NCBI GenBank assembly: GCA_937944055.1
Contig: CALDZJ010000047.1
Location: 1-38,185 of the forward strand
Reading direction: 5' to 3'
DNA: 38,185 nucleotides
DNA from: an uncultured Verrucomicrobiales bacterium
Lineage (GTDB): Bacteria > Verrucomicrobiota > Verrucomicrobiia > Verrucomicrobiales > Akkermansiaceae
This document shows positions 144 to 21,365 of this stretch, piece after piece (the stretch's first letter is position 1; each line of letters opens with the position of its first letter). The translations under genes were made by a program, and so were the position numbers. The notes under the pieces are model-generated. The model made no database searches and had not been told where the DNA came from. It saw only the letters and a program-made list of their open reading frames with translations.

Positions 144-3100
144 CTACTGCTCCACCACCCTGAGACGGAGGTATTGCTCATCTTCTGATTCACCCACTGG
201 GAGAGGATGGCGGAAGCGAGCCGTGATGCTCCCATCCGGATGAGTCACCTCTGGCAAAACCGGCACTCCACCTGCTCCCCACGATCGTAAATCATCACTC
301 AGCTCAGCAGAGAAATTCACAGCTCGGAGCCCCGCCGTGCGAGTATAACTCAGCGTCAGATAATTCTGTCCGTTCAAGTTCTCCACCTTTCCCGTGATTG
401 CGAGAGGCATGCTCCCACGGTCCCTCGGGAGTGAACCCAGCGCGAATTCGATAAAGTTCGTCCACCCATCGCCATCTGGATCCGCATCTGGGCCGGAGAT
501 TGAAGCATCAGCCAGCTCAGCCGCATTGAAGAACGAGTTCTGCCATCCCGCAAAATTCGCGATTCCGCCCGGCGTCCCTCCGACCAAGGCTGAAGCCACC
601 CAATTCGCCCCCACACCATGGTCGTCTTCCGAGTTATTGAGCACAATCGAGTGCCCATCAAGTTCATCTAAAACCGGCCAAGGTGCATTATTATCAAATT
701 CAAATTCATGAATAATGGCGTTTTCCTCCCCGATAATTCTTAGTGCCTCCCCCCCATCAGAGAGTCGGCCCTGATATTCGCCAGCAATCAAGGCATCGAA
801 GGATGACCCGTAACGGAAGCGGAAAGCCTCCAGATTCCCCACCAATATTACCACTCCTCCCGGAGGTAAAACTCGGATCGGCGACATCGCGAAATCGAAG
901 CTAATTCCATCCGTAAATCTCACCGCAGTGAGATCGACATTTGTCTGGCTGTAGTTCTCTAAACGGAGGAACTCAAAGAGATCCCCATCATCGAACCCTG
1001 CCAGCATCTCATCTACCGTAGAAGCTGAAGGATCGTATAGAAACTCCGCAATCGCGAGGTTCTCACTCGTGGCAGGCACGGAATCCACCGTGAACTCCGC
1101 CTCGGTCAGAGCACTCCATTCCCCCTCATTAAAACTACGCGCCCGGATCGTGACCGGCTCTGTAATCATGATCGGCAAATTAGCGGGGTCCACTTGGAGG
1201 CCAGAAAGCTGAAGATCCATCACCATATCACTGCTGCCAGGGTTATTATGCAACTCCACCGCAATCAGGTTCGTCCCACTTACCAAGAGTGCCGGGTCAA
1301 TCTCAAAGGTGGTATAATCCCCCTCATTCCCATCACTACTATCAGAAGTCGGGAAGGTGTCATAGACCGCATCATCAGGCACATTGGACTCTCGTAAAAC
1401 CTCCACCCCATTCAGATAAACCACCATTCCCGCATCAGATAAAATGGTCACATTAAGGCCCAGAAACGAATCTGGACTATCGATTTCGAATCTTCTCCGG
1501 AAATAAGTTGTCGGCTGGCGAGGAGCTTCCTGATTCACCAGAGTGGCAATGGGAATGAGGCTTTGCCCATCTCGGATCGTGCCGAAGCCTAAGGGAGCAG
1601 GCCCAGACCCCCACGCCAAATCGTCAAATCCGAGCAAGCGCCAAGCCGTCCCTAAATCACCATCCACCGCATTATGCCGCCAGACTGACTCCAACGGAAT
1701 CTGAGTCACCTCCATCAAGGAACCCGGCTGAGAAATCGCGTTCGGATTCGGCGCCCCCCCCAGCAGACGAGGGTCAGAACCATCCGTCGTGTAATAAACT
1801 AAACCCTCCTCATTAGTGACTAAAAGAGGGTGATTTTCTGGCACCACTCCGCCGAATTCGCTGAGCTCAGGCGGCGTGATATCTGGCCAAAGATCATTAT
1901 CTGCGAAGTCCTCACGCACCGGTCCTAGAAGATAGCGGCGACGCCCGCTCGAGGGACTAACCCACGCGGCCACCTTAGAAGTCTGCACCGCTTGGTTTCC
2001 AATCACCCGGAGAAGGTCTGAGAACTCACCCACCAAGCCATCAAAACGCCGGCGAAGATGAGAATCATTTCCCCCACGGTCATCTAAGACCCCACCGTTA
2101 AAAAGGTGCTTATGGATCCGGTCCGCAAAGATCAGGCGGAACTCTTCCCAACGGTTCAGCCCTCTCCAAAGATCACGCATCTCCCCCTCGCGGCCGGTCC
2201 GGCCAGAGTTTCCGCTCACCGTGCCGATGATATACGTCCGGATCATCTCCTGAGAAACGGGGCGATCTCCCCGGTTATTCAGAGCTCCCTCAGCATCCCA
2301 AACGTAAAGACGGTATTTCCCCTGCTCACTCCGCTCGCGGGCGGCCACCCAATTATTATGAGGCCAGTCCCAAGTCGCAGAATAAATATTAAGGAGATAA
2401 TAGTCCGCCATATTTTCAACATCAGCGACTTCTAACACCCGCTCCCAGTTCGCACTCGTGACCGTGGCATTCAAGCGGTTGATCATATCATCCCAAGCGA
2501 CCATGTCTCCCTCAGCCACGTTATCCGCACCCTCGAATTGTAAAACATCCCACTGCGCATCGTCATCCTCACTATGGAGGGAGCGGAAAAAAGGCTCACG
2601 CAAGCGCTCCACCATATTATAGTAGCCCTTCAGTTCCGCATTTACGTAAAGGCTATTGATCACGCCAAGACTTGCGGGGTTCCCCATGTCATGACTTAAG
2701 CGGCGAATCAGCTCATCCACCACGAAGGGGTTATTAATATCATTTTTTCCTGCTCGGATCCGGAAGCGCTCATAACGGCTAAAATTGCGCTCCGGCCCAT
2801 TCAGCGGGAGGTCCGCAGAAGGGTTTCCGTAGTCATCGCGGAAGTAGAGATTAAAAGAGGGCTTCTCTACTGATGAGCTCCTCCACGGAGAAAGCTGAGT
2901 CTGCGTGAGCTCCATCCGCGGGCGCGAGAAACTGCTCGCCGCCACCCTGATTCCTACATCACTGCGGAAACCCACGCTCCCATCAGGAAAATAAAACTCA
3001 GCATGAATCGGCCGCTCATAGGCTCGGCCTCGGTTGATCACATTATTGTAATCGCCAAAGCCAGTAGCGGTCCACGCATTGTTCACGTATTGCCCACCAT

Positions 3101-4547
3101 CCAGAGCCATCACTCCGAAGGGATCATAAAGCGAGCGCTCAGGATCACCTGCATAAATGAGCGTAGGGCTCGTCCGGAGGCGGGAATCTTGGCCAATCAG
3201 GAAAGTGTGTGTCCTCGTCCGTGATGGCAGCGCCCCCTCTAGGAATGCGCGCGCGCGGATGACGTGGCCTTTGATCGTCGAGACCCGCGCCAACTGCAGC
3301 GGGCCGGTGTATTCACTCCCATTTTCAAGAGTCGGCTCCGTCCCATCAGTCGTGATGCGGATCATCGCCCCCGGGGTCTGTGAGCTGATACTTACCGTGA
3401 GGGCACTGTCATAGAAGCCTCCTTTTTGATCAAAGTCTGGGCGATCCACTCGATCAACCAAGCTCTCAGCATCATTCGCTCGGCCCGGAGTCGGAATGGC
3501 AAAATACCTCTCCTCTCCTGACTCATCAAACCCATAACTAAAGCCCACATACTGAGTCGGGTATTCCGGAGTAAAACCAGACACCATCGTCCCCGAGGAA
3601 TCAAAAAGAGCGAGGTAATCTCCGCTTCCAGAGAGCCTGAAATTCGCATGGAGATAGGTCGCTCCCGTGATCGCCTCATCCGGATTATCCGCCAAAATTA
3701 CTAAAAACCCACCCGCCGGAATGCTCGTCCCGCTGGGCAAGGGCCACTTCGAAAGCACCGTAGGATCATCGCTCAAAGTCCAGCCCGTTAAGTCCACCGC
3801 CTCACTCCCCGAATTATGCAGCTCGATCCAATCTGAAGGATCTTCTGCCGGAAGACTCGGCTCCACGAGGCCTGCCGTGATTTCTCGCAAGCCCGGGAGA
3901 TAAGAGAGTGATGACCCCGCGCCGAAAAGCACCGGATCAGCTCCCGTTGGCCGATCGATCCGTAAGGACATATCGAGACGCATCGACCCATTCAGAGTGC
4001 TATTATTAACCTGCACTGCCAGAACATTAACGCCTTCACTCAGGATGGAAGATGCCAGCCCCAGAGTGACTTGTTCCGTTGCCGTGCCCAAGGGACTAGT
4101 CCGGTAAGCGAGTTGGTCATGGTAGATGTGAGCCTTAGCCTCACCCATGTTTCGGCGAGCCACCTCGACTCCATTTAACCACGCGATAAACCCATCATTG
4201 TAATTAATCGTTAAAACCAAAGGAGCACTACTCCCAGCCTCACTCCCGCTCGCCTCGAAGGTCTTACGCGTATAAAAAGAGGGCGAGACATTACTCAGCT
4301 CCGGCCCGAGATTCGTAGAGATCGAACCAAGCGAGAAGCCGATGGGCATCCGCCCCGCTCTCCAAGCACTCTCATCAAAACCCAATGACCACCAAGCCGG
4401 CCCAGCACCCGCAAAGGCTTGATCATTCGCATCCCAGCGTAGGGTGCGCGGCGCATGCGTCGTGGAAATCTCATTAATGACCACCTCAGCTGCTAAAATC
4501 ACAGGGAAAATTGCCCCACAAAAAATGCCGATTTTGAAATTCATCAT
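144..4547 (-). CDS. Secreted lamin-tail / CotH-family surface protein
   Basis: A predicted exported protein of about 1467 residues. I start it at the ATG-ATG pair at 4542-4547, because a signal peptide (MNFKIGIFCGAIFPVILAAE) follows at once; the longer upstream frame is not signal-like. Domains in order: a galactose-binding-like beta-sandwich (about 30-200), a lamin-tail domain (about 235-345, with DWIELHNSG and a TGWTLSDD strand), a chitobiase-C/Fn3-like module (about 375-450, with TTDGTEPT), a CotH-like domain (about 520-800, with NLYFRDDYGN and YNMVERLREPF), a second chitobiase-C-like stretch (YYTTDGSDPR), a second copy of the galactose-binding module, a second lamin-tail domain, a DPDGDGWTNFIEFALG linker and a terminal beta domain ending LRLRVVEQ. 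CotH domains are atypical protein kinases in spore-coat biology; their role in secreted Verrucomicrobia proteins is unknown. Likely cell-surface or extracellular. It has the same architecture as the protein at 27733-31563. Confidence 0.88.
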   Translation of the reverse strand: MMNFKIGIFCGAIFPVILAAEVVINEISTTHAPRTLRWDANDQAFAGAGPAWWSLGFDESAWRAGRMPIGFSLGSISTNLGPELSNVSPSFYTRKTFEASGSEAGSSAPLVLTINYNDGFIAWLNGVEVARRNMGEAKAHIYHDQLAYRTSPLGTATEQVTLGLASSILSEGVNVLAVQVNNSTLNGSMRLDMSLRIDRPTGADPVLFGAGSSLSYLPGLREITAGLVEPSLPAEDPSDWIELHNSGSEAVDLTGWTLSDDPTVLSKWPLPSGTSIPAGGFLVILADNPDEAITGATYLHANFRLSGSGDYLALFDSSGTMVSGFTPEYPTQYVGFSYGFDESGEERYFAIPTPGRANDAESLVDRVDRPDFDQKGGFYDSALTVSISSQTPGAMIRITTDGTEPTLENGSEYTGPLQLARVSTIKGHVIRARAFLEGALPSRTRTHTFLIGQDSRLRTSPTLIYAGDPERSLYDPFGVMALDGGQYVNNAWTATGFGDYNNVINRGRAYERPIHAEFYFPDGSVGFRSDVGIRVAASSFSRPRMELTQTQLSPWRSSSVEKPSFNLYFRDDYGNPSADLPLNGPERNFSRYERFRIRAGKNDINNPFVVDELIRRLSHDMGNPASLGVINSLYVNAELKGYYNMVERLREPFFRSLHSEDDDAQWDVLQFEGADNVAEGDMVAWDDMINRLNATVTSANWERVLEVADVENMADYYLLNIYSATWDWPHNNWVAARERSEQGKYRLYVWDAEGALNNRGDRPVSQEMIRTYIIGTVSGNSGRTGREGEMRDLWRGLNRWEEFRLIFADRIHKHLFNGGVLDDRGGNDSHLRRRFDGLVGEFSDLLRVIGNQAVQTSKVAAWVSPSSGRRRYLLGPVREDFADNDLWPDITPPELSEFGGVVPENHPLLVTNEEGLVYYTTDGSDPRLLGGAPNPNAISQPGSLMEVTQIPLESVWRHNAVDGDLGTAWRLLGFDDLAWGSGPAPLGFGTIRDGQSLIPIATLVNQEAPRQPTTYFRRRFEIDSPDSFLGLNVTILSDAGMVVYLNGVEVLRESNVPDDAVYDTFPTSDSSDGNEGDYTTFEIDPALLVSGTNLIAVELHNNPGSSDMVMDLQLSGLQVDPANLPIMITEPVTIRARSFNEGEWSALTEAEFTVDSVPATSENLAIAEFLYDPSASTVDEMLAGFDDGDLFEFLRLENYSQTNVDLTAVRFTDGISFDFAMSPIRVLPPGGVVILVGNLEAFRFRYGSSFDALIAGEYQGRLSDGGEALRIIGEENAIIHEFEFDNNAPWPVLDELDGHSIVLNNSEDDHGVGANWVASALVGGTPGGIANFAGWQNSFFNAAELADASISGPDADPDGDGWTNFIEFALGSLPRDRGSMPLAITGKVENLNGQNYLTLSYTRTAGLRAVNFSAELSDDLRSWGAGGVPVLPEVTHPDGSITARFRHPLPVGESEDEQYLRLRVVEQ

Positions 4548-4622
4548 ACAACTATGGCGCAGATCGGAAGCCCCTGCACACAAAAAATCCGTGATCTTTC
4601 ACACGTTTCTTCAGAAAACCCC

Positions 4623-13110: not shown

Positions 13111-13200
13111 AACCTCACAGCGTGCCGCCCCCTCGTCCTTTTGGACACTTCACTTTTCCATTGCCCATCTCACAAGTCCGCGATATCCATTCCCCTCCAA

Positions 13201-13620
13201 GTGAAATTTTTTCACTCCATCTTCCTGCTTCTCGCTTGCCTTCACATTTCTGTGGGCTCCTTGAACTGTCTTCAAATCATTGCTTGGGCCAATATGATTC
13301 ATGATTACTCGGAAGATCATAGCCTAGAAAAAGCCACTGCCATGACCTTCAGCGGTGATCATCCCTGTGAGATGTGTCTCTGTATTGCCGCCGCCAAATC
13401 CGCAGAATCCGCGAAACAAGAAGATCAAAAAGCCCCTCTTCCCAGTGAAGATCGTCAAAGTTTCCGGGCCGAGTTTCAACAGCTCAGCAAGTCTGAGATC
13501 CCGAATGTCAAGCAGTGGCGGAAATCACGCACCAGCCCCCGCGCTGGCCAATCTCTGCTCACATCCTCCCGCGTCGAGGAGTCCATTCCGACTCCTCCGC
13601 CCCGGCACCTCAGCGCCTAG
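13201..13620 (+). CDS. Small exported HPCxxC-motif protein
   Basis: 139 residues from the GTG at 13201, which gives a signal peptide (VKFFHSIFLLLACLHISVGS). A TTG 60 bp upstream would add a non-signal-like extension. The mature part begins NCLQIIAWANMIHDYSED and contains FSGDHPCEMCLCIAAAKSAE (HPCEMC at 54-59). A Lys/Glu/Ser-rich helix and a Pro/Arg-rich tail follow. The LQxxAWxxM...HPCxxC pattern recalls small secreted proteins I associate with metal-related loci in Verrucomicrobia; that link is from memory and unverified. The cysteines could bind copper or zinc or form disulfides. It precedes the propeller-cytochrome cluster on the same strand, with a 230-bp gap. Confidence 0.72.
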   Translation: MKFFHSIFLLLACLHISVGSLNCLQIIAWANMIHDYSEDHSLEKATAMTFSGDHPCEMCLCIAAAKSAESAKQEDQKAPLPSEDRQSFRAEFQQLSKSEIPNVKQWRKSRTSPRAGQSLLTSSRVEESIPTPPPRHLSA

Positions 13621-13639
13621 GCTCCCCGCCGAGCCCCCG

Positions 13640-13695
13640 TTTCTTAAAAGGCTCAGATAAAAGCCTCTTAAAGAAATCCTGCCCTTCCGCAGGAT
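13640..13695. other. Two adjacent intergenic hairpins
   Basis: TTTCTTAAAAGGCT (from 13640) pairs with AGCCTCTTAAAGAAA (to 13676) around a short loop, with one or two mismatches. It abuts a second perfect stem, ATCCTGC-CCTTCC-GCAGGAT (13676-13695). They lie shortly after the HPCxxC gene, so they may end its transcript or protect its 3' end. No T tract follows. The remaining gap to 13850 contains an 11-bp tandem repeat (TCCACGCTGCC) and no gene. Confidence 0.45.
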
Positions 13696-13850
13696 CCTCC
13701 TCAATCGCTCAGTCTTGCCCTCGTGCAACTCTCGCTCTGATTTCACGCTGACTTCCACGCTGCCTCCACGCTGCCTCCGCGCCGCTCGCCCTCCTCCTCA
13801 CCACCTTTCACGGTGGACCATCCTACTTAGCTCTCACCCACCTGAGATTC

Positions 13851-16448
13851 ATGTTTTCTCTTAAAAAAATCCTCACCTTCATCGCCACCTTCCAGCCCCT
13901 CCTCGGGAGTGAGGAACATTTCTTCGCACGTCACGTGAACCCTCTCACCCTGACTCCAGATGCCTCACAACTCCTCGCAGTGAACTCGGCCGAGGGCCGC
14001 CTCTCGGTCTTCCGCATCGGCCCTCAAGCGACCGATCATCCCGTTCTCACTGCCGAGATTCCCGTAGGACTTCTCCCCGTTTCAGTCCGGATGAGAACTC
14101 CTGATGAAGCTTGGGTCATTAATGAACTCTCAGACTCCATCTCCATCGTCTCCCTCTCGCGCCGAGTCACGCTAGCCACCATCCCCACGGGTGACGAGCC
14201 AGCCGATGTCGCCTTCGCCGCAGGCAAAGCCTTCGTCACCTGCTCCCGTGATAACTCCATCGAGGTCTTCGATCCCCGCACCCGGACCAAGCTCGCCACC
14301 ATCCCCCTCCAGGGAATCTTTCCCCGCGCCATCATCGCCTCGGCAGACCGCACCCTCCTTCACACCATCTTCCTCCACACCAGCAATGGCACCACCATCC
14401 TGCCCCGTCATCAGGCCCCTCCGCAAAAGATCCCAGAAAGCTTTCGTCCAGAGCTCCCCCCGCCTCCGCGAGTTGGCCAAATCGTCCCCACTGATCACGA
14501 GTCCATCGCCTACGAGGTTCTAGATCATGATCTTGCCACCATTGATGCTCAGACCCACGCCGTCGTCACATATCAGGGAAAGCTCGGCACAAATATGCTA
14601 AGTCTCGCCAGCCTCCCAAATGGCGATCTACTCATCGGTAATAGTGAATCGCGGAACCTCATCGCGCTGGAGCCTGAGCTTAATGGCCGCTTCGCCTTCA
14701 CTCGCCTCGCACAGCTCTCGGGAGGAGAAGTGACCCAAAGCCACCTCAATCCGGACCCCGATCTCACCTTCCCAGAAATCACCCCGAATGACTCCGCGCT
14801 TTCGCAAATCTTCGCCATCCTCCCGGAGTCGAACTCGCAAGCTTGGCTCGCCTCCTTCGGCAGTGATCGCCTCGCCCGCTTTAATCTCAACACCCGAGAA
14901 GTGAGCGCCCTGATTGACCTCCGGCAGGGGGATCAGAGCGTCCGCGGTCCCCGAGGACTCGCAGCCCACCCTAGTCTCCCCCGCCTCTTCGTCCTGAACC
15001 GCCTCTCCCACACCCTCAGCAGCATTGACACCGAGAAGCTCACCCTCTTTTCAGAAATCTCCCTCTCCTCTCACTCGGATTTAGAACCCTCGCTTAAACG
15101 GGCGCGAGGCCACCTTTTTGATGCCCGCCTCTCGGGAAATGGCAGCGTTTCTTGCGCCTCCTGCCACATTGATTTAGAGCGCGATGGAATGGCTTGGGAC
15201 CTTGGTGACCCCGCCGGCTCCATGCTCAGCATCCCAGGTGCTCTCCTCTCCCTGCACTCGCCGGACTCCATCATAGAGCGCGCCATCCACCCGATGAAAG
15301 GCCCTATGATCACGCAGACCCTCATCGGACTAGCAGACCAGACTAAGCTGCACTGGCGTGGCGATAAACCTAGCATCCAGTCCTTTAATTCCACCTTCCC
15401 TAAGCTGCTGGCCGCCCCTCTGCTACCCGCAGATGAGATGGATCAAGTCGCCGCTTATCTCCTCAATCTCCGCCATCATCCTAATCCTCACCTCCAGCTA
15501 GACCGCAACCTTCCCGCAGAAGTGGCAGGTGGGAACCCTAGCGATGGCATCGCGGTCTTTACCCTCTTTGATAACCACTGCTCAGCCTGCCACCACCTCC
15601 CCTCCGGCACGAGTAATAATCTCGATATCCCCTCCACCTTCGGCTCCTCCCAACCCCTCAAAGACGCCCCACTCCGCACCACCTATCACCGGAATTTTTT
15701 CAACCCCACTCCCGGCCAGTCCTCGCTCAGTGGCTTCGGCCTCGGCTCGGATGGCTCCCACCATGAGCTCCCAATCTCCCATCCCTACTCTCTTCACATT
15801 CTCGATGATATCGACCGCCCCCTCGCCACCCGTGAGAAGGAGAAGCGTGATCTCACCGCCTTCATCCTCTCCTTCGATACCGGGACCGCCCCCGCCATCG
15901 GACACAGCATCACCATCACCGCCGAGGACGGCACTCCTCCTGACCTCCTCGCAGAACTTTTCACCCTGCAAGCGCAAGCGGAGCTCGAGGAGTTGAGCGG
16001 AGTCGGGCTCATCGCACGGGGCATCTATCAGGGCCAATCACGCTCATTCCAATACCTCCCTGCTACCCGCAGCTACCTTGCAGACCATTCGCAGGAGGCT
16101 AGTCTCAGCCCCTCCCAGCTCAGTATCTCCCAGCTCATCGATTCCCTTCTGCCGGGCGATGCTCTCACCTTCACCGGGGTCCCCTTTGGCATGACGCCTT
16201 ACTACTCGATCGACCGCAACCGCGATGGCACTCCTGATAATTCACTCGCTCCGCCATCTCTCTCACTGGGCCAAAATCGACTCCTCACTTGGCCCGCAAA
16301 CCGTAATGGCTGGCACCCCGAGGTCTCTACCGACTTCCAAGAATGGGCCCCCGTTCTCCGCCCTGCTGAAGAGGAAAATTCCCTCTTCAGACTATCACCT
16401 GAAGCCGACTCTCCGCAGAGCTTCTATCGCCTTCGCCGCACTTGGTAA
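13851..16448 (+). CDS. Secreted beta-propeller di-heme cytochrome c
   Basis: 865 residues with a signal peptide (MFSLKKILTFIATFQPLLGS). Residues about 25-400 form YVTN/SMP30-like propeller blades (AVNSAEGRLSVFRIG, WVINELSDSISIVSLSRR, AFVTCSRDNSIEVFDPRT, FVLNRLSHTLSSIDTEKL). A c-type cytochrome section follows with two heme sites, CASCH (435-439) and CSACH (577-581), in a MauG/cytochrome-peroxidase-like order with HPMKGPMITQTLIGL between them. The C-terminal 150 residues include DRNRDGTPDNS and a terminal beta domain ending SFYRLRRTW, shared with three other secreted proteins in this window. Likely periplasmic or cell-surface, binding or oxidising a substrate through the propeller. It opens a tight three-gene cluster: the next gene starts 48 bp on. 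It needs System II heme attachment, encoded convergently at 18067-21365. Confidence 0.88.
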   Translation: MFSLKKILTFIATFQPLLGSEEHFFARHVNPLTLTPDASQLLAVNSAEGRLSVFRIGPQATDHPVLTAEIPVGLLPVSVRMRTPDEAWVINELSDSISIVSLSRRVTLATIPTGDEPADVAFAAGKAFVTCSRDNSIEVFDPRTRTKLATIPLQGIFPRAIIASADRTLLHTIFLHTSNGTTILPRHQAPPQKIPESFRPELPPPPRVGQIVPTDHESIAYEVLDHDLATIDAQTHAVVTYQGKLGTNMLSLASLPNGDLLIGNSESRNLIALEPELNGRFAFTRLAQLSGGEVTQSHLNPDPDLTFPEITPNDSALSQIFAILPESNSQAWLASFGSDRLARFNLNTREVSALIDLRQGDQSVRGPRGLAAHPSLPRLFVLNRLSHTLSSIDTEKLTLFSEISLSSHSDLEPSLKRARGHLFDARLSGNGSVSCASCHIDLERDGMAWDLGDPAGSMLSIPGALLSLHSPDSIIERAIHPMKGPMITQTLIGLADQTKLHWRGDKPSIQSFNSTFPKLLAAPLLPADEMDQVAAYLLNLRHHPNPHLQLDRNLPAEVAGGNPSDGIAVFTLFDNHCSACHHLPSGTSNNLDIPSTFGSSQPLKDAPLRTTYHRNFFNPTPGQSSLSGFGLGSDGSHHELPISHPYSLHILDDIDRPLATREKEKRDLTAFILSFDTGTAPAIGHSITITAEDGTPPDLLAELFTLQAQAELEELSGVGLIARGIYQGQSRSFQYLPATRSYLADHSQEASLSPSQLSISQLIDSLLPGDALTFTGVPFGMTPYYSIDRNRDGTPDNSLAPPSLSLGQNRLLTWPANRNGWHPEVSTDFQEWAPVLRPAEEENSLFRLSPEADSPQSFYRLRRTW

Positions 16449-16496
16449 AAGAAACGCCCTCACTTTCCTTCAAATAAAACTCTCAGAAAAAACACG

Positions 16497-17150
16497 ATGA
16501 AAAATACCCATAAATTACTCCTCGCACTTAGTGCCACCGCGCCACTGCCCGCCGCCGTCATCACCGCCGCTAATGGCAGTGCCGCAGGCTCAGCTGGCTA
16601 CACTTGGAATGTTAGCTTAAACTCCGCCGACCGTGACAACACGACCTTTGTTGGCAGTGTCGGCTCCTGGGCATGGGAAGACCGTGACCTCAATGAAGAC
16701 CCCGCCCTTGGTGGAAATAATAACATTGGCTGGCGTCACCAATCAGACTGGATCGCCGTCACCCTCACGGAATCTAGCCGAGTCACGATCCAGATGGCGC
16801 GCTTTGACCCCAGCGCCGATCTCAAGCTCTTTCCCTCCTTCACGATCTATGAAAATCTCACCAGCATCACGAATCGGCATTTTTATGAAAACGACCGCGA
16901 TCTAAGCTGGGACCCCGCCCTCCTTTATCAGGGACATCTTGCCAATTCCACTTCTGGAACAGTGACGATGACGCTGGATCTCCCCGCCGGAGATTACAGT
17001 CTCGTCCTTGGTGGGAACTCCACCTCCGAGGCCAGCAGTGTCCCCGTGAACTACCGCAGCTCCATCAGCACCGCCCCGATTCCAGAGCCCTCCACGCCCC
17101 TCCTCACCCTTCTCGCCAGCCTTGCGCTTTTAAAGAGAAGGCAACGCTAA
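16497..17150 (+). CDS. PEP-CTERM sorted surface protein
   Basis: 217 residues. A signal peptide (HKLLLALSATAPLPAAVITA) leads into a beta-rich domain with VGSWAWEDRDLNEDP, SDWIAVTLTESSRVTIQMAR and LPAGDYSLVLGG. This resembles the pre-peptidase C-terminal-like / DVUA0089-type fold common in PEP-CTERM proteins. The C-terminus is a classical PEP-CTERM signal: IPEPSTP, a hydrophobic stretch, then KRRQR, for exosortase-dependent sorting. No exosortase is in the window. It sits 48 bp after the cytochrome gene and 6 bp before the His-rich barrel gene, so it is very likely co-transcribed. The repeated Asp/Glu/Asn loops (DRDLNEDPALGGNNN) might bind calcium, which is inference. Confidence 0.88.
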   Translation: MKNTHKLLLALSATAPLPAAVITAANGSAAGSAGYTWNVSLNSADRDNTTFVGSVGSWAWEDRDLNEDPALGGNNNIGWRHQSDWIAVTLTESSRVTIQMARFDPSADLKLFPSFTIYENLTSITNRHFYENDRDLSWDPALLYQGHLANSTSGTVTMTLDLPAGDYSLVLGGNSTSEASSVPVNYRSSISTAPIPEPSTPLLTLLASLALLKRRQR

Positions 17151-17156
17151 ACCGCG

Positions 17157-18005
17157 ATGAAAAAGTTCCTCCTAGTCCTCCTCACCCAGCCCGTCTTCGC
17201 CCATCACGGGCAAGACTTCTTGGTGACCTTAGACAGCAAAACGCTGGCTCCATGGCAGGCTCTCTCGGGCAGCGGCTTCGAGCACAGTCGCTACACAGAC
17301 TCTGAGGAACTTTCCTTCACGCAGACCTTTATTCTAGGTCTCCCAAATGATCTCTCCTTCGGGGCCACCTTCCGCTTTGCTGAAGAGGGTTCCGGAGGCT
17401 GGGATGATTTCTCCATCACGCCCTCTCTCCAATGGACCGCTCCCGCGCTCTCTCTCCCTGCGCTGGACTTCACCCTGCACCTCGCCATCGCAGCGGGTTG
17501 GGAAATCCCGATCAGCACTTCTTCTGCTCATGTCCACGGCGATAAAATCACCAAGCAAGACTGTCGCTCACTCATCGCCATTCCCTCGCTTTTCGCCGCT
17601 TGCCATCAGGCAAATGCCAGCTCTCAAAGCCACACTCATGACGAGGGCGGGCACTCCCACTCCGGCATCCATCGCCATGGCGAGAGCCACGGCTTCCTCC
17701 GCTTCATCGGAGAAATCTCACCCAGCTCGCGGGATCGCCTTGCGGTCAATCTCATCGCCGTTTTTCCAGAAGATGACTCGATCCAGACTGGATACGCCCT
17801 CGCTTATCGGCGGCAATTGAACGATTCATTCTCGCTCGGATTGGAGTTCACGGGGGATTTTGACGCACAGGGTGAGCACCTCGCCTACCTGACCTCCACT
17901 CTCTTTCTGAACCACCACCTGACTCTCACTCTTGGAGCCGCGGCAGGACTCAGCAGCGCCTCGCCAAGCCACTCTTTCCAAAGCCTCCTCGTGTGGAGAT
18001 TTTAG
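17157..18005 (+). CDS. Outer-membrane beta-barrel protein with His-rich loop
   Basis: 282 residues. It starts 6 bp after the PEP-CTERM stop, with a short signal peptide ending VFA|HHGQDF. The body is an alternating pattern typical of a small outer-membrane beta-barrel (DLSFGATFRFAEEGSGGW, LDFTLHLAIAAGWEIPI, SFSLGLEFTGDF, LTLTLGAAAGL) and ends with the terminal aromatic expected for BAM recognition (LLVWRF). A loop at about 159-179 reads HTHDEGGHSHSGIHRHGESH, with seven His, and the mature N-terminus is also His-His. Two Cys flank a segment before it (QDC...AACH). This strongly suggests binding of a transition metal such as zinc, copper or nickel. It closes the cytochrome/PEP-CTERM cluster and converges on ccsA. 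Confidence 0.83.
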   Translation: MKKFLLVLLTQPVFAHHGQDFLVTLDSKTLAPWQALSGSGFEHSRYTDSEELSFTQTFILGLPNDLSFGATFRFAEEGSGGWDDFSITPSLQWTAPALSLPALDFTLHLAIAAGWEIPISTSSAHVHGDKITKQDCRSLIAIPSLFAACHQANASSQSHTHDEGGHSHSGIHRHGESHGFLRFIGEISPSSRDRLAVNLIAVFPEDDSIQTGYALAYRRQLNDSFSLGLEFTGDFDAQGEHLAYLTSTLFLNHHLTLTLGAAAGLSSASPSHSFQSLLVWRF

Positions 18006-18066: not shown

Positions 18067-20133
18067 TTACTGGGCTGCTTTCTGAGCCCGCTCGATCGCC
18101 CAAGCGACCACCCCTACCAAGAAGGCCACCAAAGTCGCCCCATAGAAGTAGTAAACCGTGCTCGCTCCCTCGATAAATCCGTAGGAATGGAGGCCCACTT
18201 CCAACATGTTTACGCCCCACCAAGAAAAGACCACCACGGAGCCCCCCAGAATGCTCATCAGGTGGATTCCCCAGCCCTTCATCCAGCCCGCCAAGCGGCA
18301 ATGCAAGATGATCAAGCTCCAGAGGACGATCAAAAGAGCCCCGTTTTCCTTAGGGTCCCAGCCCCAGAAACGCCCCCAAGAATCATTGGCCCAAATCCCT
18401 CCGAGGACCGTTCCCACCAGCGAGAATAAAAGAGTGAAACAGGTGATCCCATAAGCGGTCCGCGTCATAAAGCGGTGGAAGGCTCTCGGATCTTTCATCA
18501 CGCCGGCCAGCGCTAGGAAGACGTAAGTCATGGAGAGAAAACAGGCGATCAGGCCGCCACTGTAACCGATCGTGATCGTGACAACATGAGTGGCGAGCCA
18601 GTAGTTCGAATCTAGGACGGCGCGCAAGGGGTCCATGTTATCCTTGGCGTCTCCTAGCTCAAAGCGGAAGGCGAAGAACAAGCCAATCACACCAATCGCC
18701 GAGGCGATGGAGAGAAGAATACGCCGCCTTGTCAAAAACTCGGCGATTCCTAGCACAAGAACCGCACCGGCGGTGATGAAAGGAATCGTATCGTAAAGAT
18801 TCGAGACTGGCGGACGCCCGGTGATGACAAATCGGTGAACGATCCCCGCCAAAACATAGGCAAGGGCCACGATGAAAATCACAGCCGTGACGCCCTGAAT
18901 GACGCGCCCTCCCTTGCCATCTCGCACGATCCATCCCAAGGCTGAAACGAGGAAGGCGAAGATGAACCAAGCGAGTCCATGGATGAAGTAATTCCGATTA
19001 TAGTAAGTCACTTCCGTATCGATCTTGGCCCCTTCTTCACGTAACTCAGCTCGATAGCTGAAGTCCTTTTTCCAAGAGGTGAGCTGGTCTAGAAATTCCG
19101 CCGAGTTAGGCTTCTTAGAAGCCTCGCCGAGGTCAGAGAGTTTTTTAAAGTCCTTAAAAAAGATGGTGGGATCTGCTAATTCCCCTCCCAGAAACTGCTC
19201 CACTCCGCCGCCTAAATTCACCCAGGTATCCTCTTCTAGCGACTGAGGCGGAAATAAAGTGGGCCCGTAGTTCGCAAAAGTAGCTTGCCGATTCAGCTCG
19301 AACTCAAATTGCCGAACTTCTGGCGTCTGCAAGGCTCTGGTCGATTTTAACAAGCTATCGAGAACGGGCAACCAATATAGAAAGCGGGTCGGCTGGCTCA
19401 CTTGATTCAGCATCTTAACCGTTTCTTGATCGATCAATGCGAGCTGGCTGGAATCAATTTCCGGCAGGCCTCCACGGATGATGTCTAGGGAATCTCGTAC
19501 TCCGGTGTAGTTCAGAACGAGTTGAGCAAATTCCACGGTTTTCTGCTCATTCTTGCTGAGAGACTCCTTCCCTTCTGATTCCTGCTTTTCTAGGAGCTCT
19601 CGCCCCCGAGCGAGCAATTGTTGAAAGCCATCTTCATCGGCACTTCCACCAGCCTGAATGTCATTAAAGCTGAGGCGGGCGCGGCGCTTCTTTGTCTCGA
19701 TGTTGAAGGGCTTAAGAATATCTGAGTCATCCAAGCGGAAGATGGGGAGATCATCGACCAAATCCGGGCGGAACATGCAATCTAAGAACCAATCGACAGG
19801 GCCGATCTTATGCACCACTCCAGCGGACTCCACCTTCATGGTGAGGGCTCCATGGAAGCTGAGCATCTTAAAGCGGGCGTATGTTGCCAGCGGCTTCACG
19901 CGGCCACCATCCTGCACCGGAATGGCCGAGGCGACCTCGATCACCTCATCACTCCATGGGGAATATCCCGGGACCTCGCGCAGCTCCGTCTCCGGAATGG
20001 CACCGCGGATTCCATAGCCCACGAGCCCAAAAAGGACGACCAAGAAGAAGAGGGCAAGACCCCAGCGGAGGCCACGATAGCTAGGCTGAGCTGACTGTAC
20101 TGACTGAGCGGAAGATGATTTTTTAGCACTCAC
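18067..20133 (-). CDS. ccsA: Cytochrome c biogenesis protein CcsA (System II heme handling), long form
   Basis: 688 residues from a GTG start that overlaps the resB stop by 4 nt (GTGA). After one N-terminal membrane segment (about 25-47) there is a large periplasmic region (about 60-370) beginning SAIPVQDGGRVKPLATYARF, then the multi-span CcsA core. The tryptophan-rich WWD heme-binding signature is at about 580-600 (SWGRFWGWDPKENGALLIV), with a conserved His in LEVGLHSYGF near the C-terminus. CcsA works with ResB/CcsB to carry heme across the membrane and attach it to CxxCH motifs. Classical CcsA is about half this length; the extended N-terminal region is known from PVC and Bacteroidetes homologues. 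Likely clients in this window are the cytochromes at 13851 and 23906. Confidence 0.93.
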   Translation of the reverse strand: MSAKKSSSAQSVQSAQPSYRGLRWGLALFFLVVLFGLVGYGIRGAIPETELREVPGYSPWSDEVIEVASAIPVQDGGRVKPLATYARFKMLSFHGALTMKVESAGVVHKIGPVDWFLDCMFRPDLVDDLPIFRLDDSDILKPFNIETKKRRARLSFNDIQAGGSADEDGFQQLLARGRELLEKQESEGKESLSKNEQKTVEFAQLVLNYTGVRDSLDIIRGGLPEIDSSQLALIDQETVKMLNQVSQPTRFLYWLPVLDSLLKSTRALQTPEVRQFEFELNRQATFANYGPTLFPPQSLEEDTWVNLGGGVEQFLGGELADPTIFFKDFKKLSDLGEASKKPNSAEFLDQLTSWKKDFSYRAELREEGAKIDTEVTYYNRNYFIHGLAWFIFAFLVSALGWIVRDGKGGRVIQGVTAVIFIVALAYVLAGIVHRFVITGRPPVSNLYDTIPFITAGAVLVLGIAEFLTRRRILLSIASAIGVIGLFFAFRFELGDAKDNMDPLRAVLDSNYWLATHVVTITIGYSGGLIACFLSMTYVFLALAGVMKDPRAFHRFMTRTAYGITCFTLLFSLVGTVLGGIWANDSWGRFWGWDPKENGALLIVLWSLIILHCRLAGWMKGWGIHLMSILGGSVVVFSWWGVNMLEVGLHSYGFIEGASTVYYFYGATLVAFLVGVVAWAIERAQKAAQ

Positions 20134-21365
20134 GAGGCAGAAGGTTCCGTGGTTTGATTTTTCTTAGAACGGCTGCTCCCCGCAAAACGGCCGAGCATCA
20201 TAAGAAAGTGAATCAGCAAGCCGATGGTGGAAGCGTAGAGCGCGTATTCCGGCCATTTATCGGAGGGGTTATTCACGATTGCGAAGGTCGAGGAGGGAGT
20301 CTCACCCTCCGCTGCGGCGGTATAACCTGCTTGATAAAGGGTGTATCCGTCATGCCGCGCGGGCTCGTTCATCACGATCTCATACTCCTCACGGACCTTG
20401 CCATCGACCTTCGTAATGTTGCTTTGAAACCAACTCGGAATGCTGGTCCCGGGGTGATACTCGCCGAGAGTTTTGTGCAGATCGACCACGAAGGGCATGG
20501 GCCAGATTTCCATCAGATAAGTGACACCATAGCGCTGCCCTTGATACGTGAAGCTCACCGGATAGGGATTGCCCGCCCAGAGAACGAGGCGTTGGATCAA
20601 GTTCCCCTCCGCATCCTTCACCGAGAGATAGCAGCCGGGCATATTGGCCTCCTCCTGCTTAATGTCTTTCTCGGTCTCTGTGATGAAAAATCCATCCACC
20701 ACCTCCACTCCATTAGGCGCTGGGTTGCTAGGCGAGTCTAAGGCAAGCAGCGAGACAGGGAGGTATTGATCCACCTCCACCGTGAAGTCGAATTTCTCAA
20801 AAGTGGCCTCTAGTTTATCATTCGGCCCGAGAGGCTTGATGTATTTTGAGCGGATGATGGCGGGGGCCTCACGATCGCCGTTTTCATCATACTGGAAGAT
20901 CTCGATGTCATGCTTGAAGAGTTTTTGAGCGTAGTCGGATTTCTCCCCCTGCAAGACGCGCATGTGACCCTCCTCCTTAGAAACGCTGGAAACCGCCCCC
21001 GCAATGAGCATGAAAAGAATGGAACAATGACTCAGTAAAACCCCGAACTTCTTCCACCCCTTACGCGCCCGAATAATGGCCCCGCAAAGCATGTTAATCC
21101 CCAGAACTACGATCACCCAATACGCTCCCGGCAGCGGCAAGAAAATCGCCTTACCATTCCCGAGGGTGGGTAAAACAATCAGCGAGCTGATGTCAAAATA
21201 CTTATGAATCGTAGCCCAGAGGCCGAACCATTTTTGCTCAATCGTGCCAAAGAACGTGAGCAAGAAAAGCAGACTGAGGCAGATCACCGCTATTTCATAT
21301 CCCGCTAAAATGCGAAAAATACGCGCCGCAAGCGAGGGCCGGGATTTTTGGGTAGAATCGCTCAT
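20130..21365 (-). CDS. resB: Cytochrome c biogenesis protein ResB/CcsB (System II)
   Basis: 411 residues. The N-terminal half has membrane segments with the ResB pattern (RIFRILAGYEIAVICLSLLF, GAYWVIVVLGINMLCG, FGVLLSHCSILFMLIAGAVS). A large periplasmic beta-rich domain (about 125-365) and a final C-terminal membrane helix (YALYASTIGLLIHFLMM) follow. ResB and CcsA form the System II cytochrome c synthetase. It begins 3 bp after the stop of the upstream lipoprotein gene and overlaps ccsA by 4 nt, so the three genes are an operon. The HC in LLSHCS may contribute to heme handling, by analogy with the family. Confidence 0.9.
   Translation of the reverse strand: MSDSTQKSRPSLAARIFRILAGYEIAVICLSLLFLLTFFGTIEQKWFGLWATIHKYFDISSLIVLPTLGNGKAIFLPLPGAYWVIVVLGINMLCGAIIRARKGWKKFGVLLSHCSILFMLIAGAVSSVSKEEGHMRVLQGEKSDYAQKLFKHDIEIFQYDENGDREAPAIIRSKYIKPLGPNDKLEATFEKFDFTVEVDQYLPVSLLALDSPSNPAPNGVEVVDGFFITETEKDIKQEEANMPGCYLSVKDAEGNLIQRLVLWAGNPYPVSFTYQGQRYGVTYLMEIWPMPFVVDLHKTLGEYHPGTSIPSWFQSNITKVDGKVREEYEIVMNEPARHDGYTLYQAGYTAAAEGETPSSTFAIVNNPSDKWPEYALYASTIGLLIHFLMMLGRFAGSSRSKKNQTTEPSAS

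What the first reader, a model, noticed from the sequence alone, without database searches (positions are those of the whole stretch)
13201..18005. Candidate cell-surface redox/metal system: HPCxxC protein, propeller di-heme cytochrome, PEP-CTERM protein and His-rich outer-membrane barrel
Three genes (13851-18005) lie on one strand with gaps of 48 and 6 bp, and an exported HPCxxC protein lies 230 bp upstream. The set combines a propeller-fused di-heme cytochrome, a PEP-CTERM surface protein and an outer-membrane barrel with seven His in one loop. This suggests that a transition metal is bound at the outer membrane and oxidised or reduced by the cytochrome. I know of no described system with these four parts together. 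The parts are seen in the sequence; the joint function is inference.
Basis: partly seen in the sequence, partly recalled or inferred. Interest (0 to 1): 0.72.

Follow-up and report, generated by a model that had tools for sequence, protein, structure and literature searches.

The report
Verrucomicrobial CorA-like copper-capture gene cluster
These neighbouring genes look like a copper-capturing system of the cell surface, related to one known from methane-eating bacteria, in which a heme enzyme is thought to turn a tryptophan of a surface protein into a copper-holding group; here it travels with an outer-membrane channel in a different group of bacteria.

Summary
In detail: HPCxxC protein, propeller/di-heme cytochrome, PEP-CTERM protein and His-loop barrel lie as described, and the block is conserved: of 80 loci fetched with the cytochrome, 46 hold the PEP-CTERM gene, 23 in the order HPC-cytochrome-PEP-CTERM-barrel on one strand; in 97 related genomes all 21 with the PEP-CTERM domain have cytochrome and barrel. 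The triad holds in 75 of 77 complete domains; two multi-domain homologues pass Pfam's CorA cut-off, the window protein alone does not. CorA is paired with a MauG-like di-heme enzyme suspected of making the kynurenine (PMC3912023); here one cytochrome clade sits beside the CorA-like gene in 51 of 51 testable rows, its sister clade in 0 of 23. Best reading: copper(I) capture, a new variant of CorA/CorB. Copper binding, kynurenine, regulation and the roles of barrel and HPC protein are inferred.

The parts
13201..13620 (+). HPCxxC protein: hydrophobic N-terminus, W29, M32, HPC-x-x-C (C56, C59), C-terminal PPP tail; a family wider than this cluster
   Evidence: both Cys in 66 of 66 aligned rows and P133/P134 in 65 of 66 (84 hits, duplicates and rows under 90 aa dropped); found in 69 of 97 genomes; upstream of the cluster in 37 of 43 testable loci
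13851..16448 (+). Cytochrome: YVTN beta-propeller (N-terminal part) fused to a di-heme CCP/MauG-type domain (CxxCH at 435 and 577); proposed kynurenine-forming maturase
   Evidence: H644/Y646; tree
16497..17150 (+). CorA/MopE-like protein with PEP-CTERM tail; proposed Cu(I) site W79 (to become kynurenine), H81, H128
17157..18005 (+). Predicted 12-stranded outer-membrane barrel with a His-rich loop (about residues 121-177)

Best explanation
A copper-capture cluster of the CorA/CorB (MopE/SACCP) kind. The 217-aa PEP-CTERM protein is exported, processed by exosortase and held at the cell surface. The propeller/di-heme cytochrome, a MauG-like enzyme, oxidises its Trp79 to kynurenine; the kynurenine with His81 and His128 then holds one Cu(I) tightly. 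The 12-stranded barrel passes the copper (or a copper complex) through the outer membrane, its His-rich outer loop taking the metal over, and the HPCxxC protein handles it on the periplasmic side. Shown by computation: gene conservation, similarity to CorA/MopE, conservation of the three ligands, a cytochrome clade tied to the CorA-like gene, a predicted barrel. Inferred: copper rather than another metal, kynurenine formation, who makes it, uptake rather than defence, and the roles of barrel and HPC protein.
For: Profile of 30 rows against all PDB chains: CorA 4bz4 E 3.4e-6, MopE* 2vov E 6.6e-4, next hit E 0.18 (with 14 rows 1.7e-4 and 0.0046 and no other hit up to E 1). In the printed alignment CorA W62, H64 and H114 stand against the columns of W79, H81 and H128 (counted); the crystal structure has Kyn62, H64 and H114 at the copper (PMC3912023, section read). 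Triad kept in 75 of 77 complete domains; one paralogue (L190) has lost all three. Two of two multi-domain homologues scanned pass the Pfam Cu_bind_CorA cut-off (38.1 and 37.1 vs 27 bits). Foldseek: CorA and MopE have the highest TM-scores by model length (0.48, 0.46) among the 50 rows listed. Cytochrome tree: 59 rows beside the CorA-like gene in 51 of 51 testable cases, 26 rows of the sister group in 0 of 23 (SH-aLRT 100). H644 and Y646 in 60 of 60 rows of the first group (window included), in 0 and 2 of 26 of the second; Tyr ligation of the second heme marks MauG and BthA (PMC6405878, passages). Precedent: corA and corB co-transcribed at low copper, CorB MauG-like (PMC3912023).
Against: The window protein alone is below the Pfam CorA cut-off (17.0 vs 27 bits), phmmer with it alone found nothing in the PDB, and of 14 single-domain relatives only 6 matched the Pfam model at E 0.01, best E 0.0023. 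The TM-score to CorA is modest and smaller beta-sandwich domains reach equal E-values. In M. alcaliphilum a corB-homologue mutant grew faster on methane (PMC3912023), against an essential maturase; a corA mutant of M. buryatense grew normally on methane (PMC11784148, passages). No metal-regulator site was found: Zur-like consensus not above base shuffles in 70 stretches upstream of HPC genes, one of them (L158) misplaced. Barrel and HPC gene also occur as a pair without the other two in the stretches looked at (L131, L132), so they may serve another metal. Five of 46 loci have two cytochromes and no barrel found, though two of them end 0.5 kb past the cluster. The AMO/pMMO search was uninformative because its controls were silent.
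Confidence: 0.62

Rival explanations
1. Zinc acquisition: a PEP-CTERM exoprotein that works like ZepA of Anabaena and feeds zinc to an outer-membrane pore; the His-rich loop binds zinc.
For: ZepA is a PEP-CTERM exoprotein that mediates zinc uptake and has homologues in the PVC superphylum (PMC10957091, abstract and passages). HPC genes also lie beside other PEP-CTERM proteins (L133, L134), in L133 next to a protein with a weak choice-of-anchor M match. His-rich loops often bind zinc (general knowledge).
Against: The profile of the PEP-CTERM protein matches CorA and MopE. No Zur-like box enrichment upstream of HPC genes. None of its NCBIfam matches at E 0.1 was a ZepA-type model, but that the library holds such a model is only recalled. 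A tied di-heme enzyme has no obvious role in zinc binding.
Confidence: 0.12
2. Copper defence: surface protein and barrel bind and keep out or export excess Cu(I), and the cytochrome removes peroxide or oxidises Cu(I).
For: The same ligands would serve; di-heme peroxidases can remove peroxide (general knowledge).
Against: CorA, MopE and the M. alcaliphilum homologue are made at low copper (PMC3912023; PMC11784148 passages, although its abstract calls CorA copper-induced). No copper exporter or multicopper oxidase was recognised in the 16 window ORFs scanned; those from 23873 on were not scanned.
Confidence: 0.13
3. One reading: the cytochrome itself oxidises or reduces a transition metal at the outer membrane, with the barrel as conduit or metal site.
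For: Heme protein, barrel and surface protein encoded together; copper would have to be reduced for a Cu(I) site.
Against: A two-heme CCP/MauG-type domain, not a multiheme conduit; the cytochrome clade follows the CorA-like gene (51 of 51 testable rows) more closely than the barrel (32 of 40 testable loci).
Confidence: 0.1

Closest known systems
CorA-CorB of Methylomicrobium album BG8 and MopE-SACCP of Methylococcus capsulatus
   Same: Surface Cu(I)-binding protein with Trp/Kyn-x-His and a second His; gene beside a di-heme CCP/MauG-like cytochrome (PMC3912023).
   Different: Here a PEP-CTERM tail, a propeller fused to the di-heme domain, a His-loop barrel and an HPCxxC gene in the cluster, versions with several CorA-like domains in one protein, and Verrucomicrobiota hosts. 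Whether CorB or SACCP have a propeller could not be tested.
MbnP-MbnH of methanobactin operons
   Same: Also a partner protein with a MauG-like di-heme enzyme (PMC3621798, passages); the solved 'Di-heme enzyme' 6e1c (MbnH as I recall) is among the nearest hits of the heme-1 region.
   Different: The cytochrome scores 15.7 bits against the MbnH-family cut-off of 362.85; no MbnP model among the partner's NCBIfam matches at E 0.1.
ZepA (All3515) of Anabaena
   Same: PEP-CTERM exoprotein for uptake of a scarce metal (PMC10957091, abstract and passages).
   Different: Zinc and Zur control; no sign of either here.
Hydrazine synthase beta and gamma subunits
   Same: Propeller plus di-heme domain; gamma shares the stretch CASCH...WDLGD.
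   Different: 34.8 bits against a cut-off of 1250 for the beta-gamma fusion.
FapF and COG4313 outer-membrane channels
   Same: Similar barrel shape (TM by model length 0.51-0.61).
   Different: No sequence match in the PDB below E 0.1; a long His-rich loop.

Membership tests
CorA/MopE copper protein (PF18252) | Significant profile similarity to CorA/MopE | tested here: met
   30-row profile finds 4bz4 (3.4e-6) and 2vov (6.6e-4) first; homologues L165 and L194 over the Pfam cut-off. The window protein on its own stays below it (17.0 vs 27 bits).
CorA/MopE copper protein (PF18252) | Copper site Trp(Kyn)-x-His plus a second His about 50 residues on | tested here: met
   W79-R-H81 and H128 align with CorA 62, 64, 114; 75 of 77 complete domains (97 rows, 20 partial ones dropped)
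CorA/MopE copper protein (PF18252) | Fold | tested here: inconclusive
   AlphaFold pLDDT 84.4, pTM 0.80; CorA TM 0.48, rank 4 by E-value, smaller beta-sandwiches similar
CorA/MopE copper protein (PF18252) | Gene beside a di-heme CCP/MauG-like cytochrome | tested here: met
   51 of 51 testable cytochromes of the clade
CorA/MopE copper protein (PF18252) | Kynurenine present, Cu(I) bound, copper-repressed, surface-located | not testable with these tools
   needs the protein and the living strain; PEP-CTERM signal and exosortase matches fit surface sorting
bCCP/MauG superfamily (PF03150) | Two CxxCH and Pfam match | tested here: met
   29.1 vs 25.6 bits; both motifs invariant in 19 aligned rows
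bCCP/MauG superfamily (PF03150) | Trp between the hemes; Tyr on the second heme (MauG type) | tested here: inconclusive
   W502 in 86 of 86 rows; Y646 in 60 of 60 and H644 in 60 of 60 of the CorA-linked group, 2 and 0 of 26 in the other; no heme-bearing model was made
MbnH/MbnP pair | NCBIfam MbnH model and a partner of the MbnP model | tested here: not met
   15.7 vs 362.85 bits; no MbnP model among the partner's matches
ZepA zinc exoprotein | ZepA-type sequence and Zur box | tested here: inconclusive
   no ZepA-type model among the matches (presence of such a model in the library is recalled); Zur-like consensus not above shuffles

The most novel reading that the evidence does not exclude
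A complete copper-uptake cassette outside methanotrophs: a propeller-fused maturase installs kynurenine copper sites, three or four in tandem on one large surface protein in some relatives, and a dedicated His-loop barrel hands the copper through the outer membrane without a TonB receptor. It would supply the missing outer-membrane step of the CorA/MopE route.
Probability: 0.3. Interest if true: 0.8.

Novelty: new variant of a known kind. Interest (0 to 1): 0.62.

Why it matters
[quoted passage not shown] A conserved block that couples a CorA-like protein, a matching MauG-like enzyme and a barrel, present in named type strains such as Roseibacillus and Haloferula (that these are not methanotrophs is recalled), makes both questions testable and adds single proteins with several such sites.

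Tried and rejected
Chance neighbourhood: rejected. Cytochrome c biogenesis genes at 18067-21365 as part of the system: rejected; homologues at E 1e-10 in only 2 of 80 fetched loci (L141, L148; many loci are short). Zinc protein and Zur control: no support, not excluded. MbnH/MbnP: cut-off not met. Hydrazine synthase: far below the cut-off. Plasmids: CorA-like protein none, cytochrome one record at 30% identity. Partners of the sister cytochrome group: the CorA-like profile found none in its loci; a by-eye list of neighbours showed none either, but that output was cut. Possible counterexamples: the G004 cytochrome falls in the sister group; the G088 cytochrome falls with L186, where the CorA-like gene lies upstream, and the G088 contig ends there. 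PF18252 over 145 genomes of the phylum: no match, controls silent, uninformative. AMO/pMMO search in 21 genomes: controls silent, uninformative. Common upstream motif: none found. Original SACCP and CorB papers: not held. VIA-align library: not on the machine.

Full report
WHAT IS THERE. The window is a contig of a 2.59-Mb draft genome; the nearest named record by the cytochrome is a Verrucomicrobiales MAG (78% identity, L141). The cytochrome has a YVTN propeller and a CCP/MauG-type di-heme domain, the PEP-CTERM signal passes its cut-off, and the barrel models as 12 long strands with the His-rich loop between strands 5 and 6. With both ends in the periplasm, as is usual for such barrels, that loop is extracellular (inference).

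IT IS A UNIT. In 97 related genomes searched with each protein, 21 have the PEP-CTERM protein's domain (best E 1.2e-9 or lower; genomes matching in the PEP-CTERM tail alone were left out), 23 the cytochrome at 370 bits or more and 25 the barrel at E 0.001. All 21 have all three (Fisher 2.5e-19 with the cytochrome, 1.3e-17 with the barrel; cut-offs chosen after seeing the tables, genomes not independent). Two have the cytochrome without the CorA-like gene. That of G004 belongs to the sister group described below; that of G088 belongs with L186, where the CorA-like gene lies upstream, and the G088 contig ends inside the cytochrome on that side. Of 80 loci found with a cytochrome profile (at least 544 relatives existed, the best 80 were kept; several are the same genomes as above), 46 hold the PEP-CTERM domain at E 1e-15: the HPC gene is upstream in 37 of 43 testable, the barrel present in 32 of 40 testable; the order HPC-cytochrome-PEP-CTERM-barrel on one strand in 23. 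The HPC gene is more widespread (69 of 97 genomes).

WHAT THE PEP-CTERM PROTEIN IS. The first hint was a sub-threshold Pfam CorA match; of 14 single-domain relatives 6 match that model at E 0.01, none better than 0.0023. A 14-row profile found CorA and MopE alone in the PDB up to E 1; a 30-row profile raised CorA to 3.4e-6 and MopE to 6.6e-4, with the next hit at 0.18. Counted along the printed alignment, CorA W62, H64 and H114 stand against the columns of W79, H81 and H128. The paper names Kyn62, H64 and H114 as the copper site, the kynurenine as a second-sphere ligand (PMC3912023, section on the crystal structure). Among 97 aligned rows, 77 have letters in all three columns and 75 of these keep W, H, H; one has W, H, D; one paralogue in L190 has lost all three beside an intact copy. 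The 20 other rows are partial hits and were dropped. Large homologues in the same gene position carry several such domains (four matches in G071, three each in G078 and G081); the two scanned pass the Pfam cut-off. The predicted fold is compatible but does not decide.

THE CYTOCHROME IS TIED TO IT. A tree of 85 cytochromes from the 80 loci splits into 59 and 26 (SH-aLRT 100, quick method). Of the 59, 51 lie within 3 kb of a CorA-like gene and 8 are cut by a contig end; of the 26 (Pedosphaera-like, Planctomycetota, Acidobacteriota and others), 23 have none and 3 are cut. The profile could miss very distant partners in the second group, which is also sampled only in part. The first group with the window always has H644 and Y646 (60 of 60 each), the second has 0 and 2 of 26. 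They lie 63 and 65 residues after the second heme's His. MauG and BthA have a Tyr ligand on that heme, in BthA 92 residues after its His (His371, Tyr463; PMC6405878, passages). I take Y646 or H644 as the candidate ligand (inference). W502, in 86 of 86 rows, is the candidate for the Trp between the hemes (inference; motif recalled).

HOW IT LIKELY WORKS. By analogy with CorA/CorB: the enzyme oxidises W79 to kynurenine, the site takes Cu(I), the protein sits at the surface. In M. album corA and corB are co-transcribed at low copper, and the authors suggest that the MauG-like partner makes the kynurenine; a corB-homologue mutant that grew faster counts against this (PMC3912023: introduction, results and discussion read), and a corA mutant of M. 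buryatense grew normally on methane (PMC11784148, passages). The barrel's loop and an HPCxxC protein would carry copper on. Some stand-alone HPC genes lie beside TonB receptors (L127, L128, L135), which fits metal uptake but not a given metal. The genome has two matches to heme-copper oxidases, so it probably needs copper.

WHAT IS KNOWN AND WHAT IS NEW. In the listings and passages seen from seven paper searches, CorA/MopE appear with methanotrophs and no verrucomicrobial cluster was seen; most subscription papers are not held. The core is known; the host phylum, the PEP-CTERM tag, the propeller fusion as seen here, the barrel, the HPC gene and the tandem domains make the variant.

Noticed in passing
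L190:11291-13285: Two CorA-like genes in tandem: the second has lost all three copper-site residues (W, H, H to R, E, A).
   Followed up: partly
L147, L149, L152, L161, L171: Two different cytochromes of the family flank one CorA-like gene, and no barrel was found in these loci; L149 and L161 end 0.5 kb past the cluster.
   Followed up: partly
L155:7239-8141, L174:12452-13261, L182:12335-13234, L133:5482-6363, L134:4300-5250: Further PEP-CTERM-type proteins, matched only weakly by the CorA-like profile, beside the cluster or beside HPC genes; some similar hits carry a GDSH motif.
   Followed up: partly
L127, L128, L135: Stand-alone HPCxxC genes beside TonB-dependent receptors of siderophore or PqqU-like type.
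   Followed up: partly
L131:3398-4913, L132:3398-4794: HPC gene and His-loop barrel as a two-gene unit without cytochrome or CorA-like gene in the 8-kb stretch.
   Followed up: partly
window 13200-13216: Perfect inverted repeat (7-3-7) across the proposed GTG start of the HPC gene; not a common motif upstream of relatives.
   Followed up: partly
L192, L195-L211, L213-L220: Sister group of propeller/di-heme cytochromes in Planctomycetota, Acidobacteriota and Pedosphaera relatives with no CorA-like neighbour found; function unknown.
   Followed up: partly
window 144-4583: Large protein with CotH, lamin-tail and Fn3-associated domains.
   Followed up: no
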